From Candidatus Aquirickettsiella gammari (GTDB taxonomy: Bacteria; Pseudomonadota; Gammaproteobacteria; Diplorickettsiales; Diplorickettsiaceae), in assembly GCA_002290645.2 (NCBI GenBank), contig NMOS02000004.1, forward strand, positions 37,544 to 101,543: a stretch of 64,000 nt of DNA. Direction: 5' to 3'. This document shows positions 2,176 to 19,464 of this stretch, one piece after another. The notes below the pieces were generated by a model, which did no database searches, was not told where the DNA came from, and saw only the letters and a list, made by a program, of their open reading frames with translations. Position 1 is the stretch's first letter. Every line of letters begins with the position of its first letter. The position numbers were made by a program, and so were the translations under genes.

Positions 2176-5100
2176 ATGTTAAATGGATATCAATTCGACG
2201 CTGCGCTTAATCTAGACAAGGTTTTCAAATGCACTCCACCACCCAAGATTAATTTTTCCATACTCCCTAAGTTAGCTAAAGATTGGCGTGCTGAATTAGA
2301 AGTTATCCTTTACCAATCCGAAAGTTGCTTAGAAAAAAAGAGCCTCGAAAAGCATTTAGGCGCAGATTCTAGTTATCAATCAAAAAAAATATTGGCTGAA
2401 CAATTACAACTTATTTATTATCGTTTACAAGGTGATTTAGATACAGAATTAGGCCAACTTTCCGATGATGCCAGGAAGGCTTTACTCAGTAAACTAACAG
2501 AAGAAATAACACAATGTACCGCTGGCTTCCACAACCGAGTCAATGCTATCGTTGCCTCTTTTCAAAGACCGCGTAATCTCGAGCAATTGCTCTACCTGGT
2601 ACGAACAACGATAGTAGAAGAGGTAGCTTTCTCGCTGACCAACGAAGTCCATGCCTGGAATCAGGTTAGTGTCATCGCGGCGACTGAGGGCTTGGGCATA
2701 AAACCTATTTTTTCTGGCGATCCTCATTCAGGGAATCTAATCGATGATAGCATTGGAAAGGCTTTACGAGAAAAATTTCAGAAAAAATTTACCCCTTTTA
2801 ACTTACCCAATTTATTAGTCCATGCTTTAATGGGACTACTCCCAGAATTAGAGGTAGAAAAATCAGAGATAGAAACAGGGGAAAAAGAGGGTTTATGCTC
2901 AGAAACAGTCGAAAAAATCATTAAGCTGATTAAATGCTATATACCAAATAGCATCACTTCCGATCCACTCGATTGGCAAAAATATTTTAACATCTATGAG
3001 GATTGTATCTTTAATGTGAATTGGAATGCCGTGTATCGATATTTTTATCAAGAATTATCTAAAGAAAATTATTTTAAACAAGCGCCCGAAATACATCATC
3101 TGGTTGACCGCGCTTATTACCACCTGACTTTAACGGAGCCTGATCCAACGGATCATGAATCTAGTTACATTAATCAACTCTTTGATAATCAACTCTTCGA
3201 TGAAAAAGACTATTCTAATTTCGATTCCAGCTTACTCTATCAATTAGAAAAACTAGAAATTAACTTTCCAGATTATTATCGCCACGTAACGGGCAACCCT
3301 AGCTTAATTAAGCGTAGTGTAGAACTTATTCCTTATTTGCAAAAAAAGTTCCCTGATAGTGAGAATTATCGGTCTGGAATAATGCAAGGATTTCATTTAT
3401 TGACCACCTTAAATTTAGAGGTGGATGAATATGTTATTTTAAGGATAGCCTATACATTGCTACTAAAGAATCAAATAAACTATACACCCTTAATGCTCGC
3501 AGCCCTTAACGACCCTAATATCGTAGAAGGTATTTTAAAGTTCCTCATCCAACATCAAACAATCATTGATATTGATATATGTCGGCAGCTATTCCTAGCA
3601 AAGGATAAATATGATCGTAACGCCCTGATGCTAGCCGTAGCCTATCAACCAATTGCAGCCACGTTGATGCTATCATTTTTCGATACATATCTTTTATCAT
3701 CTCCCGACAAAACCATCAAAAAATCTGCGGTTGATTTAATCCAGGAAATTTTTTTAGAAAAACAGGGTAATAATTATAATGTTCTGATGTTAGCTGCGAG
3801 TAAGCGAGCACAAATTGCTCTGAACATCCTGGGATTTTTAACAAAACATATCTCTAGCTTTGCCCAAAATACCCTGCAAACCTTATTTACCGCAAAACAA
3901 GACAATAGTTACACTGCCTTTACATTAACCGCATCGAATCACCCTGAATACGTAAAAAATATTTTATCTTTTATCGAAAAGCATATAAAAAAATTCGATC
4001 CCGAAGCCTTACGCGAATTATTTTTTTCAGGCCAACAAGGAACTGCTTGCACCGCTTTGATGTTAGCCGCGGATAATCAAGCCGAAGCAACTCAAGCTAT
4101 TTTAGACTTTATTAAAGCACATATAGAAAAGTTTGATCCCAAGCTGATTCGGCAGATGTTTCTAGAAAAAGATGGGCGCGAATATACTGCCTTGATGTCA
4201 GCCGCAAAAGCTCAAACTGAAACGGTAAAAATTATTTTAAGCTTTATCGAACAACACCGTAACATATTTTTTGATGACCAATTATTAATTGCAGAGGTTC
4301 TGCTCGCCAAGGATGAATTCGGCACTACCGCCTTGATGCTGGCCGCCGAAAATCAACCCAATGCGATGATACTTCTTTTAAATTTTATCAATAAAAATAT
4401 CGACATCCTAAACATTCACGTAATTCGAGAGTTACTCTTCAAAGAAATCCATGATTACGAAGCCAGCATGGGTGTTTTCCTGGGCGGTCGATTTAATACC
4501 AGAAAAACCCTGTTAATGGCTGCGGAACGAAAACATCCCCAAGTGACCGAAGCACTTTTGTCATTTATAGATGAACATATTGAACGGTTAATGCTGGAAA
4601 AACGCAAACATCCCCAAACAGCCAGCACACTTGATGAACATGCTAAACGATTAGAACCCGATATACTCACACAACTATTATTAGAAAAAGATGGCGCCGG
4701 TAATAATCCTTTTATGCGCGCATGTACTAAGCATCCAAGGACGATGAACGGCACTTTGAACTTCATTGCCAATATCACTGAAATGGAAAGTGGTGCCTTC
4801 AATAGCGTTCAAACAGAAATAGCTAATTTTATATTCATGCAACTAGCTCGAATGTCCTTGGAAGAACCCGAAGAAAAAACCATCGTCGACAAGATCTTAC
4901 TCAGTAGTTCACCGTTATTATTAACACATTTCACTAAGAACTATTTTGCCGAACGCCCGGCTAACCTAGCCTATATTACTAATCAATTATTCGAATGTTA
5001 CTTAGAAGAGCTTGAAGATAGAACAGTAAGGCATATTTCTTATACTACCCCGTTCTCTTTCTTTGGATGGCGTTATTCTACCCGCGAAAAAATGGATGCC

Positions 5101-5358
5101 GCTAAGAAACTCAAAGAAATTGTACAGCTTGATTCTTTTAGTTTACAACAGTTAAATGAACTCGATAAAAAAAACCGTTATCACTGGCCCTTAACGGAAA
5201 GCCGCTTGGGTAATTTATTTGCTGCTTACCGTAGCATTGCAGACAATGCAGTTGATAATCGAGCAGAGACCCTCCATATTCTTGATAATAACAATACCAT
5301 TACCCCTATTGAGAAACCGAGTACCTCTGCGGCTTATTTAAAGCAATCAGTGGCCTAG
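2176..5358 (+). CDS. Large ankyrin-like repeat protein, candidate Dot/Icm effector
   Basis: This is a 1060-residue cytosolic-type protein without signal peptide or membrane segments. A clear ribosome binding site (GAGGGG) precedes the ATG. Residues 1-430 match no family I recognise. From residue 436 a degenerate repeat begins, each unit opening with TALMLAA-like residues, at about 437, 482, 535, 580, 626, 671, 718, 778 and 844. The common period is 45 residues: an ankyrin-style helix pair followed by an extra helix such as ILDFIKAHIEKFDP. The tail (about 860-1060) is unassigned. Ankyrin-type proteins in Legionella and Coxiella are often secreted host-acting effectors, and the Dot/Icm locus lies in the same window. 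Effector status is an inference, as is host function. Confidence 0.75.
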   Translation: MLNGYQFDAALNLDKVFKCTPPPKINFSILPKLAKDWRAELEVILYQSESCLEKKSLEKHLGADSSYQSKKILAEQLQLIYYRLQGDLDTELGQLSDDARKALLSKLTEEITQCTAGFHNRVNAIVASFQRPRNLEQLLYLVRTTIVEEVAFSLTNEVHAWNQVSVIAATEGLGIKPIFSGDPHSGNLIDDSIGKALREKFQKKFTPFNLPNLLVHALMGLLPELEVEKSEIETGEKEGLCSETVEKIIKLIKCYIPNSITSDPLDWQKYFNIYEDCIFNVNWNAVYRYFYQELSKENYFKQAPEIHHLVDRAYYHLTLTEPDPTDHESSYINQLFDNQLFDEKDYSNFDSSLLYQLEKLEINFPDYYRHVTGNPSLIKRSVELIPYLQKKFPDSENYRSGIMQGFHLLTTLNLEVDEYVILRIAYTLLLKNQINYTPLMLAALNDPNIVEGILKFLIQHQTIIDIDICRQLFLAKDKYDRNALMLAVAYQPIAATLMLSFFDTYLLSSPDKTIKKSAVDLIQEIFLEKQGNNYNVLMLAASKRAQIALNILGFLTKHISSFAQNTLQTLFTAKQDNSYTAFTLTASNHPEYVKNILSFIEKHIKKFDPEALRELFFSGQQGTACTALMLAADNQAEATQAILDFIKAHIEKFDPKLIRQMFLEKDGREYTALMSAAKAQTETVKIILSFIEQHRNIFFDDQLLIAEVLLAKDEFGTTALMLAAENQPNAMILLLNFINKNIDILNIHVIRELLFKEIHDYEASMGVFLGGRFNTRKTLLMAAERKHPQVTEALLSFIDEHIERLMLEKRKHPQTASTLDEHAKRLEPDILTQLLLEKDGAGNNPFMRACTKHPRTMNGTLNFIANITEMESGAFNSVQTEIANFIFMQLARMSLEEPEEKTIVDKILLSSSPLLLTHFTKNYFAERPANLAYITNQLFECYLEELEDRTVRHISYTTPFSFFGWRYSTREKMDAAKKLKEIVQLDSFSLQQLNELDKKNRYHWPLTESRLGNLFAAYRSIADNAVDNRAETLHILDNNNTITPIEKPSTSAAYLKQSVA

Positions 5359-6206: not shown

Positions 6207-8840
6207 ATGGAAATTTATAACAAACTCTTTGAAATTTTAAATCCTGGTGATCTGCTCCTCACCGCCAATAAACGTTTAATTTCGTTTTTACATAAAGCGT
6301 ATGCCGATTATCAACAAACACAAAAAAAAATGCGCTGGCCAACACTTTCCTTGTTTACTTTATCGCGCTGGTTAGAATTACTGTGGGAAAAACAACAAAT
6401 AGAACAACAAAGTTTTCCTTTTCGCTTACTCACAGAACAACAAGAATATGTCATTTGGCAAACTATTATCAATAAATCCCCTTATCTTTTATTAGATACG
6501 CAGGATACCGCCAAAAGAGCACAACAAGCTTGGCAACTACTCCATCTGGCACAACTTAATTATAGATCGTCTCACTTTAAACAAAATAAGGAAACAGCCA
6601 ACTGGCAAACCTGGGCCAGCACTTTTGCTGAGCTTTCTAATACCTACCATTATATCGACGCGTGTAGTGCTACGAATCTTTTGATCGAATTATTGCAAAA
6701 AAAAATACTAACTCCGCCTAAACGTATTTTTTTGCTGGGATTCACCGAACTTAATCAGCAATATAAAAAATTATTAGATTGTTTAGCCGAACAACATTGT
6801 ATCATCTCTCACTACACACCCGCTTATAGCAAACCTAAATTACAACGTTTAAGTTTAGTGGATAAAGAAACAGAATTTCGCAGCATGGCACTATGGGCCC
6901 ATCAATGCGAGCAAGCCGGTAAAAGAAATATAGCCTGTGTTGTCCCTAATCTTATCGAACAGCGACCGCAATTGCTCAGGCAATTTAGTGAGGTATTCAC
7001 CGAACTAACCCCAACAAGCCTACATCGACCGCCTTTTAATATTGCTGCCGGCAATCCGCTCAAAGAATTTGCTCTGATTCAAACCGCCCTAACGATTATT
7101 GAATTAAAAAATATTAATTCCTTTAGTAAAGTGAGTGGATTGATACGCTCACCTTATCTAGGCGGCGCTCAACAGGAGCAATCACAACGTGCACAACTGG
7201 ATATTAACTTACGCTGCCATAGTGAAAGCAAACTAAGTTTAGCCGTCCTAGTCGCGGCGAGTAAAAAACAAGCTTGTCCACACTTAGGCCACTTAATAAG
7301 TCAGCTTATGCCATTACTCAAAGAATATGAGGGTAAATCTTTAGCTAAGCCCAGTTTGTGGGCCAAACACTTTGCTAAAAAATTGCATTGTTTAGCTTGG
7401 CCTGGTGAACGCAATCTAAACAGTTGTGAATTTCAATTGCTTGAACGTTGGTCCGAATTATTGACTGAACTGGCGGGTTTGGATTTTATTCTGGGCCCAA
7501 TAAGTCAAGCACACGCTTTACAACAACTGCAAGAATTAATTGCCAATTGCTTATTTCAAGCTAAAACACGCCATGATCCTCCTATTCAGGTATTAGGAAT
7601 ATTAGATACTGCCGGTATTTACTTTGATGCGATGTGGATAATGGGTCTAGATGATAAAACCTGGCCAGTCGCTGCCAAAGCAAATCCATTTATCCCTCAT
7701 TTTTTGCAGCGACAACATCAGTTACCCCATGCATCGAATGAACGGGAATTCTATTTTGCACATCTGTTGACACAAGGTTTAATCCGTAGCGCGCCAACAC
7801 TTATTTTTAGTCATGCAGCGCAAAACTTAGATCAAGTTTTACGTCCCAGTCTATTAATTAACGCGATGCCCTCGATAGAATTGAGCGAATTAACACTGCC
7901 GCATTACCAATCACGCGCGGAAAAGATACGCGCCACGCAAGATTGGGAATATTATCACGATGAGCAAGGTCCAGCGCTACCGGGTGAGCAATACTACTCG
8001 GCGACGAGTCAACTGCTTCAATCGCAAGCGACTTGTCCTTTTCAAGCCTTTGCACGCTTTCGTTTAAACGCTAAATTTTATCCCTTGCCAGCAATCGGAC
8101 TCAATGCCAGGGATCGTGGCATACTTTTACATCAAGTTTTAGAGCAATTTTGGAATACCTTAGTGAATCAAGAGGCACTCTTGCAATTATCTGACGTCGC
8201 GCTCGATGAGCAAATCGATACGGCAATTGATTTATGTATAGTCAGCTACACTAAAAAACGACCCTTTATTTTCAAACCTCACTTTATCGATATAGAACGC
8301 CGTCGTTTGCGTAGTCTGTTAAAAAATATCGTTGACCTAGAAAAACAACGTCCGCTTTTTATACAATCGCTACATGAACAAAAACAAAACTATACACTCG
8401 GTAAACTGGCATTGAATTTACGTATTGATCGGATCGATCAACTGGCCGATAACAGTTACCTCCTCATTGATTATAAAACTGGTCTCCCTACGACAATAAA
8501 TTACTTAGAAGAACGCTTAGATCATCTGCAGCTACCGCTGTATTGTTTAGCCTATGCTGAAACCGTACGCGGTTTTGCGCTGATGCATATTCGTAGCAAT
8601 ACCCTTGCGCTACAAGGGATCACGGCAGAAGAAACCGGGATGACGCAACTAAACTCACTCAAAAAACTAAAGACAACGCTGGTTCTACGCAGTTGGTCCG
8701 ATCTGCTCAAGTATTGGCGCGCCTTATTAGAAAAATTAGCACAGCAATTTGAAATAGGTTTTGCGGCAGTGGATCCGAAACGCGGTTCAACAACTTGTCA
8801 GCAATGTGATCTAAAGTTACTGTGTCGCATCAATCACTAG
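6207..8840 (+). CDS. AddB-like PD-(D/E)XK nuclease of double-strand break repair
   Basis: An 877-residue protein of the AddB-like 'probable DNA repair protein' type. Its C-terminal nuclease domain shows GILLHQVLEQFW, the acidic residue D741 in RIDRID, and D755/K757 in LIDYKTG, the PD-(D/E)XK signature. Four Cys suit an iron-sulfur clasp: C610 in TCPFQAF, then C864, C867 and C873, spaced C-X2-C-X5-C as in AddB. The N-terminal half is helicase-like but I see no intact Walker A, as expected for AddB. It very likely works with the AddA-like protein at 10651-14043 in resecting DNA ends, in place of RecBCD. An opposite-strand gene separates the two subunits, which is unusual. Confidence 0.85.
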   Translation: MEIYNKLFEILNPGDLLLTANKRLISFLHKAYADYQQTQKKMRWPTLSLFTLSRWLELLWEKQQIEQQSFPFRLLTEQQEYVIWQTIINKSPYLLLDTQDTAKRAQQAWQLLHLAQLNYRSSHFKQNKETANWQTWASTFAELSNTYHYIDACSATNLLIELLQKKILTPPKRIFLLGFTELNQQYKKLLDCLAEQHCIISHYTPAYSKPKLQRLSLVDKETEFRSMALWAHQCEQAGKRNIACVVPNLIEQRPQLLRQFSEVFTELTPTSLHRPPFNIAAGNPLKEFALIQTALTIIELKNINSFSKVSGLIRSPYLGGAQQEQSQRAQLDINLRCHSESKLSLAVLVAASKKQACPHLGHLISQLMPLLKEYEGKSLAKPSLWAKHFAKKLHCLAWPGERNLNSCEFQLLERWSELLTELAGLDFILGPISQAHALQQLQELIANCLFQAKTRHDPPIQVLGILDTAGIYFDAMWIMGLDDKTWPVAAKANPFIPHFLQRQHQLPHASNEREFYFAHLLTQGLIRSAPTLIFSHAAQNLDQVLRPSLLINAMPSIELSELTLPHYQSRAEKIRATQDWEYYHDEQGPALPGEQYYSATSQLLQSQATCPFQAFARFRLNAKFYPLPAIGLNARDRGILLHQVLEQFWNTLVNQEALLQLSDVALDEQIDTAIDLCIVSYTKKRPFIFKPHFIDIERRRLRSLLKNIVDLEKQRPLFIQSLHEQKQNYTLGKLALNLRIDRIDQLADNSYLLIDYKTGLPTTINYLEERLDHLQLPLYCLAYAETVRGFALMHIRSNTLALQGITAEETGMTQLNSLKKLKTTLVLRSWSDLLKYWRALLEKLAQQFEIGFAAVDPKRGSTTCQQCDLKLLCRINH

Positions 8841-17952: not shown

Positions 17953-19464
17953 ATGGATTCAATGAATTTAAAGGAAAGTATTTTAGCGGAGTATCTTAAG
18001 ATTTTTAATGAGTGCCAACACCATATGAATGATGTTTATGATGAGTATCGAAAAATCGATCGTTCAGCTAATGCTGCTGATTATTACGCAATTTATCGCG
18101 CTAGCTGTACTATAGCTAATCTATTTTTTAATATGAAAGAAAACATTAAAGCTAACAATTTTGCTGCAGCGGTTACCCCCGTTATTTATCCCTTTACTCG
18201 TAGAATAAAGTATGCAAGCTCTGTATTAAACCTAAAAAAAGACCATGATTACAGTCGGTCCCACGCAAAGCCTCCTCACTCAGCAACCCCACGGAAGCAG
18301 GGTGGTGTGCTGTTTCCGTCTGCATTGTCCGGCAGGAAATACGCCCGGGAACGCCTTCAAATGCGGCTTCAAGTCCGCAGCCCGCGCCTAGCGCTAGATA
18401 GCGAGACGCACGTGCTACCGATCATCAACGATTTTTCGCGGGCTAATATACATGATATTTTCCCTACGGGTCCTGGTAGTAACTCACTATATTACGAAAT
18501 AGAAAAAGTATTAGAGAAGAATCCGGAAACAAAAAAATCATTAGGGAATTTACTGAAATATACAATTAACGGGCACGATTATTATGAGGTACGGGATAAG
18601 ATTTTCACATTGATAGTGTCAATTATCCAACTATATCAAGCACTTGAAGAAAAGGAATGTAATGAAAATTCTTCACTTTTTCACTACGATTTTCAAGAAT
18701 CCATAGTTGGATCGTCTGATGAAAGTAAAAATATTTCTTCATCGGTGAAAAGTAAAGCGCTAAATCAAAGAACCAGCAACCAGGAGGAGTTGATGATGGG
18801 CGAAGTAAAAAACAAATCACGACCCTGTAAGCCTAATAAAGTCACGGCGAAAAAAGACGATCCGCAGCAGATGATCCAAACATGGATGATTCCGGCGCGG
18901 CCGATGCCGGTCGAATTGGGGTCTAGAATGAGTCCCATGGGCACGACGAGGACAGAAAATATTTCTTCTTGCTGGCGTGGCAGCTCACTCGATAGCGTAA
19001 CAAATAGTTTTGAAGCACTAACTACTGGTACGATGATTGACGATACTCCTTCTCCATCACCCGCTGTTCGATCCAAAAGACCTACTCCTCCGACGAGACA
19101 AGGAGAGCACGAAGTGCGAAGTCAAGGAGCCCGCGATAGGCGTGCGTTGACGGGCGAAGCAGGAAACGCATCACGCCGTAAAGTCATTGTGGGAGCCACT
19201 GCGCGCAGCCCAGAATGGGCCAGTGCGTGGCGGACGCAGGACGAATCGGGGCCTACTTTTAGTCGCGTGATGCGAACAAATTTTGGGGGCACGACGGCCA
19301 AAATTTTTCGTGAGCATAGCGACTCGCTTGCTATTCAAGGAAATAATTCGGCGACGAAAACGATAAAATATCCCGGCGAATTAAGGACCTTGCTCGAAGA
19401 AAAAAGCGAACAAGAGAATTATTCTTCTGCTAATGAATCAGCACTTTTCCAATGTCGAAATTAA
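17953..19464 (+). CDS. Unknown protein interrupted in frame by GC-rich palindromic islands
   Basis: A 503-residue protein of no recognised family. Its base is an AT-rich gene for a helical, soluble protein (residues 1-95, 160-300 and the C-terminus). Three stretches differ sharply: about 18251-18420 (62% G+C by hand count over 170 nt), a short one near 18890-18960, and about 19081-19250 (63%). The AT-rich DNA between the first two, 18431-18590, is 34% G+C. The islands encode Arg/Ser/Pro/Gly-rich segments and contain hairpins. The reading frame stays open throughout, so the gene is probably still expressed. It ends 16 nt before the convergent cysS gene. An effector role is possible but there is no direct evidence. 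Confidence 0.65.
   Translation: MDSMNLKESILAEYLKIFNECQHHMNDVYDEYRKIDRSANAADYYAIYRASCTIANLFFNMKENIKANNFAAAVTPVIYPFTRRIKYASSVLNLKKDHDYSRSHAKPPHSATPRKQGGVLFPSALSGRKYARERLQMRLQVRSPRLALDSETHVLPIINDFSRANIHDIFPTGPGSNSLYYEIEKVLEKNPETKKSLGNLLKYTINGHDYYEVRDKIFTLIVSIIQLYQALEEKECNENSSLFHYDFQESIVGSSDESKNISSSVKSKALNQRTSNQEELMMGEVKNKSRPCKPNKVTAKKDDPQQMIQTWMIPARPMPVELGSRMSPMGTTRTENISSCWRGSSLDSVTNSFEALTTGTMIDDTPSPSPAVRSKRPTPPTRQGEHEVRSQGARDRRALTGEAGNASRRKVIVGATARSPEWASAWRTQDESGPTFSRVMRTNFGGTTAKIFREHSDSLAIQGNNSATKTIKYPGELRTLLEEKSEQENYSSANESALFQCRN
18251..18420. repeat. GC-rich palindromic island 1 inside the unknown gene
   Basis: Hand count gives 105 G+C of 170. It holds an imperfect 10-bp stem, ACGGAAGCAG at 18291-18300 with CTGTTTCCGT at 18310-18319 (one G-T pair), then TGCGG/CCGCA around an 8-nt loop, then the palindrome CTAGCGCTAG. 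It resembles, by structure only, the in-frame palindromic elements known from Rickettsia and Wolbachia. Its copy number in the genome is unknown. Confidence 0.5.
19081..19250. repeat. GC-rich palindromic island 2 inside the unknown gene
   Basis: Hand count gives 107 G+C of 170. A nested hairpin is present: outer GCCAC at 19195-19199 with GTGGC at 19227-19231, inner GCCCA at 19208-19212 with TGGGC at 19216-19220. A smaller related patch near 18892-18910 has CCGGC/GCCGG. These patches stand out from the AT-rich gene around them and look inserted. Confidence 0.45.

What the first reader, a model, noticed from the sequence alone, without database searches (positions are those of the whole stretch)
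18251..19250. GC-rich palindromic islands inserted in frame in one unknown gene
Within the AT-rich 503-codon gene, two 170-nt stretches count 62% and 63% G+C while 160 nt of neighbouring gene is 34%. The islands hold several hairpins (18291-18319, 19195-19231) and encode Arg/Ser/Pro-rich segments, yet the frame stays open. This is like the in-frame palindromic elements of Rickettsia and Wolbachia, which I do not know to be described in Legionellales.
Basis: partly seen in the sequence, partly recalled or inferred. Interest (0 to 1): 0.72.

Follow-up and report, generated by a model that had tools for sequence, protein, structure and literature searches.

The report
Structured jumping element inside an unknown gene
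One of the two GC-rich stretches is a 240-base folded mobile element that recurs many times in this Rickettsiella-like genome and in relatives; all 142 intact copies counted sit exactly three bases after a C, and where empty sites could be compared reliably no target bases were duplicated or lost, so it likely moves as single-stranded DNA with an enzyme that we could not find, and in this gene it happens to stay in frame and would be read through as 80 extra amino acids.

Summary
The GC-rich islands are real but are two different things. Island 1 (18251-18420) is native gene: both orthologues found have it and it has no second copy. Island 2 is the front of a 240-nt mobile element at 19091-19330, absent from a 90%-identical orthologue. 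The genome holds 12 full-length copies (10 at 99-100% identity) and six pieces; 12 of 16 genomes of the order match, some only in old pieces; one relative, G014, has 140 copies. In 142 intact copies from eight genomes the fourth base before the left end is always C. At ten reliable empty sites in a close relative, insertion added exactly 247 nt without duplication or loss, and the C was already there. G014 insertions favour the lagging-strand template (96 of 140; p about 3e-8 after motif correction). Three consensus hairpins covary. These are hallmarks of IS200/IS605-type single-strand transposition, yet the eight genomes with intact copies show no Y1 transposase over cut-off and no reverse transcriptase. 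In-frame coding looks incidental: G014's variant has stops in all six frames, and codon-position changes show no protein constraint. The Rickettsia-like reading is partly right.

The parts
17953..19464 (+). Host gene, 503 codons, unknown function, no Pfam domain
   Evidence: orthologues P0001 and P0002; no match to P0001 in the other 15 genomes of the order
18251..18420 (+). Island 1: GC-rich native part of the gene, not an insert
18850..18972 (+). 41-codon segment absent from orthologue P0001; no other copy in the genome; origin open
19087..19090 (+). Target tetranucleotide C-NNN (here CCTC) immediately left of the insertion; C at -4
19091..19330 (+). Inserted mobile element, 240 nt, in frame (80 codons, frame +2 open)
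19107..19117 (+). Left subterminal hairpin GCAC-GAA-GTGC, 16 nt inside the left end; longer stem in some other variants (by eye)
19139..19177 (+). Conserved hairpin (helices 1-2 of the consensus), preceded by ATAG or GTAG in 10 of 13 variants (counted by eye)
19183..19242 (+).
19261..19324 (+). Right subterminal hairpin AGTCGC...GCGACT (helices 5-7), ending 6 nt before the right end
19327..19330 (+). Right-end tetranucleotide CTTG (CNNN in the 142 intact copies counted)

Best explanation
The insert at 19091-19330 is one copy of a non-autonomous, hairpin-rich mobile element that likely spreads as single-stranded DNA by the peel-and-paste route of IS200/IS605 elements, with an unidentified enzyme predicted to cut three bases after a C at the target and at the element's right end. 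Shown: repeated near-identical copies, clean insertion at ten reliable empty sites, C at -4 on both sides, lagging-strand-template bias in G014, covarying hairpins. Inferred: the ssDNA chemistry and the enzyme. In the window's gene the 240-nt variant, which has one stop-free frame, landed in that frame, so the gene's frame was not broken; the 80-residue segment is probably tolerated cargo rather than a function.
For: Copies: window copy plus 17 others in the own genome; 12 full-length in all, 10 of them 99-100% identical over the 240 nt. 12 of 16 genomes of the order match, eight with intact copies. Core 32-mer: 140 copies in G014, 14 in G000, 7 in G011. Absent in orthologue P0001. Ends: C at -4 in 142 of 142 intact copies, and CNNN as the last four bases in the same 142 (CTTG 130, CTGA 7, CTCG 3, CTTC 1, CGCA 1); the end was set at five bases after GCGACTC, which copies with different flanks bear out for CTTG, CTGA and CTCG, while it is assumed for the two singletons. 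Empty sites: of 115 full G014 copies, 11 had both flanks in the G015 stretches held; 10 show gap 0 with the C already present, prmA among them (abutting G015 coordinates 979126/979127). Strand: 47 '+' and 17 '-' in one replichore, 27 and 49 in the other, so 96 of 140 on the lagging-strand template, where 45% of the TC sites in the stretches held lie. Structure: 11 of 47 pairs with changes on both sides, 0 of 500 shuffles as high. Passages read for IS200/IS605: no terminal inverted repeats, no target duplication, insertion 3' of a tetra- or pentanucleotide, a hairpin at each end (PMC7290912), lagging-strand-template preference (PMC5371812).
Against: No Y1_Tnp (PF01797) at E<=0.001 in any of the 16 genomes of the order; at E<=1, of the eight with intact copies five show nothing and three a weak hit far below the cut-off (G000 0.30, G008 0.054, G010 0.059), though controls ring. 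Known IS200/IS605 sites are four or five specific bases; here one base, four away, is fixed. No autonomous copy was seen: G014 has 141 right-end motifs against 140 cores, and ten places with right-end motifs that were opened gave full, shrunken, truncated or IS-adjacent copies and one unrelated site (L183). One of 11 empty sites shows gap -1 in a poorly aligned (74%) region, and one site had a second, paralogous G015 match with gap 1. One full old copy (L017, 86%) has T at -4 and, like L050, did not fit the expression used for the 142-copy count. Folding energy alone is unremarkable (z -1.5 and -1.9).
Confidence: 0.68

Rival explanations
1. A coding palindromic element in the sense of Rickettsia RPEs: selected to enter genes in frame and to be translated.
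For: In the three genomes whose variant has an open + frame and a length divisible by three (G000, G003, G007), five copies inside open frames of at least 450 nt are read through (window, L010, L017, L046, L057) against three broken (L007, L008, L048); 1/6 expected, p 0.005. The segment also turns up in other proteins (P0003-P0014; P0003 and P0006 are the hosts of L010 and L046).
Against: The excess is what loss of broken genes would leave. Of 11 variants 4 have an open + frame with a length divisible by three (a fifth, L058, has an open minus frame). The G014 variant has stops in all six frames and lies inside open frames of at least 450 nt in 59 of 115 copies. Codon-position differences between variants show no third-position excess. 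In the own genome 7 of 12 full copies lie outside such frames.
Confidence: 0.07
2. A classical MITE moved in trans by a DDE transposase.
For: Small, repeated, without genes; weak imperfect similarity of the two ends (CGAG-C...CACGAA, read by eye).
Against: No target duplication at ten reliable empty sites; the fixed base lies on one side of the target only; replication-strand bias.
Confidence: 0.1
3. A retroelement or splicing RNA (group II-like) inserted through reverse transcription into the lagging-strand template.
For: Clean insertion, strand bias and covarying structure would all fit (that group II introns share this bias is recalled, not read).
Against: Reverse transcriptase (PF00078) was found in 1 of the 16 genomes, G015, which has only two weak old pieces of the element; in none of the eight with intact copies. 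No Rfam match. Genic G014 copies lie equally in both orientations (30 against 29), so insertion into mRNA is unlikely; genic insertions are depleted (51% against 73% at control sites), as expected if they are not spliced out.
Confidence: 0.1
4. No insert: both islands are ordinary GC-rich parts of the gene.
For: True of island 1.
Against: False for island 2: many copies with sharp common ends and an orthologue without it.
Confidence: 0.01

Closest known systems
IS200/IS605-derived PATEs (palindrome-associated transposable elements)
   Same: Short, no genes, hairpins near both ends, no target duplication, insertion 3' of a short target motif, lagging-strand-template bias (family traits from passages of PMC7290912 and PMC5371812).
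   Different: No Y1 transposase over cut-off in the genomes with intact copies; a single C at -4 is fixed instead of a full tetra- or pentanucleotide; no autonomous parent with the same ends was seen; internal hairpins of its own.
Rickettsia palindromic elements (RPE)
   Same: Structured repeat in an intracellular bacterium, some copies in frame inside genes; RPE-4 and RPE-6 are counted among the CGTC repeats, which are said to lack a dedicated transposase (PMC3733652, passages).
   Different: Sequences were not compared; RPE are given as 105-146 bp (PMC2229807, passages). Most variants here cannot be read through on the + strand, and about half of the G014 copies examined lie inside open frames that they break.
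REP/BIME elements with RAYT (TnpA-REP)
   Same: ssDNA hairpins; cleavage at CT or CA sites, which begin with C (PMC8266576, passages); ATAG or GTAG just before a conserved hairpin in 10 of 13 variants.
   Different: About 240 nt with precise ends and clean insertions; no Y1 gene over cut-off in the family's genomes; in 20 loci around Y1 matches, four of the matches weak ones in or near this family, no element end was found next to them.
Coxiella burnetii QMITE1 and QMITE2
   Same: Repeated MITE-like elements in a gammaproteobacterial intracellular pathogen, some copies in frame (PMC5896051, abstract and passages).
   Different: QMITE1 is 300-400 bp with 2-3 nt direct repeats, QMITE2 150-190 bp with 7-11 nt direct repeats; the element here showed none. 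Sequences were not compared.

Membership tests
IS200/IS605-type non-autonomous element (PATE) | No target duplication, no target loss | tested here: met
   10 of 11 empty sites gap 0, the other poorly aligned
IS200/IS605-type non-autonomous element (PATE) | Insertion 3' of a specific short target motif | tested here: inconclusive
   C at -4 in 142 of 142, T at -5 in 77 of 115; but not a full tetranucleotide
IS200/IS605-type non-autonomous element (PATE) | Hairpins near both ends | tested here: met
   the left hairpin from single-sequence folds and by eye
IS200/IS605-type non-autonomous element (PATE) | Lagging-strand-template bias | tested here: met
   96 of 140 in G014, the one genome tested
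IS200/IS605-type non-autonomous element (PATE) | Ends shared with an element encoding a Y1 (TnpA) transposase | tested here: not met
   PF01797 not found at E<=0.001 in 16 of 16 genomes of the order; none over cut-off in the eight with intact copies at E<=1, three weak hits
Rickettsia palindromic elements | Same sequence family as an RPE | not tested
   No RPE sequence was fetched
Rickettsia palindromic elements | Element has an open frame and enters genes in frame | tested here: not met
   Met for this copy and four others; not for the family: 4 of 11 variants, stops in all six frames in G014
Classical DDE MITE | Terminal inverted repeats and target duplication | tested here: not met
   no duplication; ends similar only weakly
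Group II intron or other RT element | Reverse transcriptase available; known intron core | tested here: not met
   no PF00078 in the eight genomes with intact copies; no Rfam match

The most novel reading that the evidence does not exclude
A family-wide mobile element of Diplorickettsiaceae, reaching 140 copies (1.8% of one genome), that transposes as single-stranded DNA on the lagging-strand template by a one-base cut rule (C-NNN, at target and right end alike) with an enzyme outside the known Y1 and reverse-transcriptase families.
Probability: 0.35. Interest if true: 0.78.

Novelty: new variant of a known kind. Interest (0 to 1): 0.58.

Why it matters
If the reading holds, a symbiont family carries a very active, clean-inserting small element whose driver is missing from the catalogue of transposases. 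G014 and its syntenic relative G015 form a natural before-and-after experiment that makes the driver findable, and the same pair shows how one element family can break dozens of genes in a genome while occasional in-frame copies become protein-coding sequence.

Tried and rejected
Island 1 as a repeat: rejected. Open frame as a family trait: rejected. Target duplication: none seen. Y1 transposase in the order: none at E<=0.001, three weak sub-cut-off hits at E<=1 in the eight genomes with intact copies. Y2 (PF04986): no match, but no control rang, so this says nothing. Reverse transcriptase: only in G015, which holds two weak old pieces of the element. Autonomous copy through extra right ends: in the ten stretches opened, an IS256-type and an ISAs1-type transposase gene (named by eye) beside element remnants, shrunken or truncated copies, a full copy and one unrelated site. 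Y1 genes of distant gammaproteobacteria bounded by element ends: not seen in 20 loci, best chance match E 0.1. Of the 14 distant genomes with remote relatives of the element, 13 were tested and 10 carry Y1 genes over the cut-off, but the base rate was not measured, so no weight is put on it. Phages, plasmids and viral contigs: no match. Rfam: no match for the gene region or four loci. The element's translation: no Pfam family at E<=1. Literature: no paper of the held library joins Rickettsiella with 'palindromic element' or 'miniature inverted-repeat'; in the listings (titles and abstract starts only) I recognised no description of this element. Two notebook entries are wrong: speaks of 12 sites and 11 with gap 0 (right: 11 and 10), and says reverse transcriptase in 0 of 12 element-bearing genomes (right: 1 of the 12 with any match, G015; 0 of the 8 with intact copies).

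Full report
WHAT IS THERE. A search of the own genome separates them. Island 1 has no second copy. From 19091 to 19330 the sequence recurs: 17 further matches with E below 1e-20, 11 of them full-length, 9 at 99-100% identity, one at 90% (L016) and one at 86% (L017), and six pieces (L018-L023), four of which stop at a contig end. The recent copies share the same first and last bases, CGACGAGAC...GACTCGCTTG, and diverge outside them.

ORTHOLOGUES. A protein search gave two orthologues. P0001, 90% identical, runs RPTPP-IQGNNS where the window's protein holds the 80 residues of the element, so the insertion is 80 codons, 240 nt; both P0001 and P0002 keep island 1 without a gap. P0001 also lacks 41 codons at 18850-18972, which have no other copy; I leave that open. 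P0001 as a query matched none of the other 15 genomes of the order.

FAMILY. The element matches 12 of 16 genomes of the order, some (G001, G006, G009, G015) only in pieces. A core 32-mer with up to 3 mismatches counts 140 copies in G014 (one contig, 1.89 Mb), 14 in G000, 7 in G011, 5 in G008, 3 each in G003 and G007, 1 in G010 and none in nine genomes. Named relatives are Rickettsiella MAGs, Rickettsiella massiliensis 20B and an unclassified gammaproteobacterial MAG. In 369 genomes of the class, 16 match, 14 of them outside the genus and only in pieces, with at most two candidates scored per genome; of eight such loci opened, three (L109, L111, L113) keep the right hairpin and a right end GCGAC-C-CT, the others keep inner motifs. 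Nothing was found in phages, plasmids or viral contigs or in Rfam.

INSERTION RULE. In the stretches around copies of G014 there are 115 full copies (247 nt; one 245 by its ends), 98-100% identical; in all 115 the fourth base to the left is C, with T before it in 77. Over the loci held at that point, 142 distinct intact copies from eight genomes (G000, G003, G007, G008, G010, G011, G013, G014) have it too and end in CNNN, with different last three bases in different genomes. The end was set five bases after GCGACTC, which copies with different flanks support for CTTG, CTGA and CTCG; for two single-copy variants it is assumed. Copies whose left end did not fit the search expression are not in that count, among them L017 (T at -4), L050 and two G014 copies that do have the C.

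EMPTY SITES. G015 is a close, syntenic relative of G014 (88-93% DNA identity in the region compared) with two weak old pieces only. Of the 115 copies, 20 had at least one flank matching the 200 kb of G015 held and 11 had both. Ten give a gap of zero with a C at -4 in the empty site; one, at 74% identity, gives -1; one of the ten also matched a paralogous G015 place with gap 1. So the C is part of the target, and at these ten sites insertion neither duplicated nor removed a base.

STRAND. GC skew in the G014 stretches is positive up to about 950 kb, with two slightly negative exceptions, and negative after it. By replichore the element is 47 '+' and 17 '-', then 27 '+' and 49 '-' (one search lists all 74 forward and the first 26 reverse places, so the 40 unlisted reverse places are inferred to lie beyond 1.118 Mb). 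Hence 96 of 140 have the target C on the lagging-strand template, although 45% of TC sites in the stretches held lie there; p is about 3e-8 with that correction and 1.3e-5 without it. Moving the boundary to 900, 1000 or 1050 kb changes little.

STRUCTURE. On an alignment of 13 variants the consensus has 47 pairs in three hairpins; 11 pairs show changes on both sides, against 4.8 in shuffles, 0 of 500 as high, and slid versions fall to 1-4; the count of further pair types is less extreme (4 of 500). A fourth, small hairpin near the left end is in the single-sequence folds and, by eye, in most variants with different stem lengths. Folding energy alone is unremarkable (z -1.5 and -1.9 as DNA).

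EFFECT ON GENES. In G014, 59 of 115 copies lie where an open frame of at least 450 nt continues on both sides, against 73% of 3000 control TC sites, evenly in both orientations (30 and 29). Since this variant has stops in all six frames, those frames are broken. Nine pieces of such carriers were scanned; eight have a Pfam family, among them Mg-chelatase, PrmA, secretin, hexapeptide and histidine-kinase domains. In the three genomes with an open + frame and a length divisible by three, five genic copies are read through and three are broken (threshold 450 nt), more than the 1/6 expected (p 0.005), which fits loss of broken genes. Differences between variants in the coding frame do not favour third positions. 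The protein segment is therefore best seen as tolerated.

MECHANISM. Clean insertion, subterminal hairpins, a short one-sided cut signal that recurs at the element's own right end, and lagging-strand-template bias together match the IS200/IS605 peel-and-paste scheme (passages of PMC7290912, PMC5371812 and PMC8266576). The enzyme is missing: PF01797 has no match in 16 genomes of the order at E<=0.001 and none over cut-off in the eight with intact copies at E<=1, three weak hits apart; reverse transcriptase occurs in G015 alone. Either the enzyme comes from outside, was lost after each burst, or belongs to an unknown family. Chemistry and enzyme are inference.

KNOWN KINDS. It works like a PATE but fails the test of a shared Y1 transposase, so it is not filed as one. 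It resembles Rickettsia RPEs in place and setting (passages of PMC2229807, PMC10969869, PMC3733652), but the family is not suited to coding. Coxiella QMITEs have direct repeats (PMC5896051, abstract and passages).

Noticed in passing
L131 about 7584-7708 (G014) and many places in G015: A second repeat of about 125 nt, with ends ATACTC...GAGTAT and variable flanks: 17 matches in the 200 kb of G015 held and 14 in the G014 stretches.
   Followed up: partly
L185:2153 (G014), L184:3521 (G007): Shrunken copies of about 33 nt in which the left end is joined directly to the right end; by eye they do not have C at -4.
   Followed up: partly
L182 about 4055-5176 (G014), L188 about 1620-2142 (G008): An IS256-type and an ISAs1-type transposase gene (named by eye) end close beside element right ends, as if IS elements had landed in copies.
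   Followed up: partly
window 18850-18972: 41 codons, 51% G+C, absent from orthologue P0001 and without any other copy in the genome.
   Followed up: no
L110, L112, L114, L115, L116 (distant gammaproteobacteria): Remote relatives share inner motifs with the element (such as GTCATTGTGG or GACGCAGGACG in several); some carry TTGGATGTCC and a GTCGCC...GGCGAC hairpin, hinting at a class-wide superfamily (by eye).
   Followed up: partly
L155 and L132 (G014): A secretin (PilQ-like, by eye) gene region carries three copies of the element in about 1.5 kb, and a hexapeptide-protein gene carries two.
   Followed up: no
L192 (G015:C1:195260-195823): The only reverse-transcriptase match of the 16 genomes lies in one without intact element copies.
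   Followed up: no
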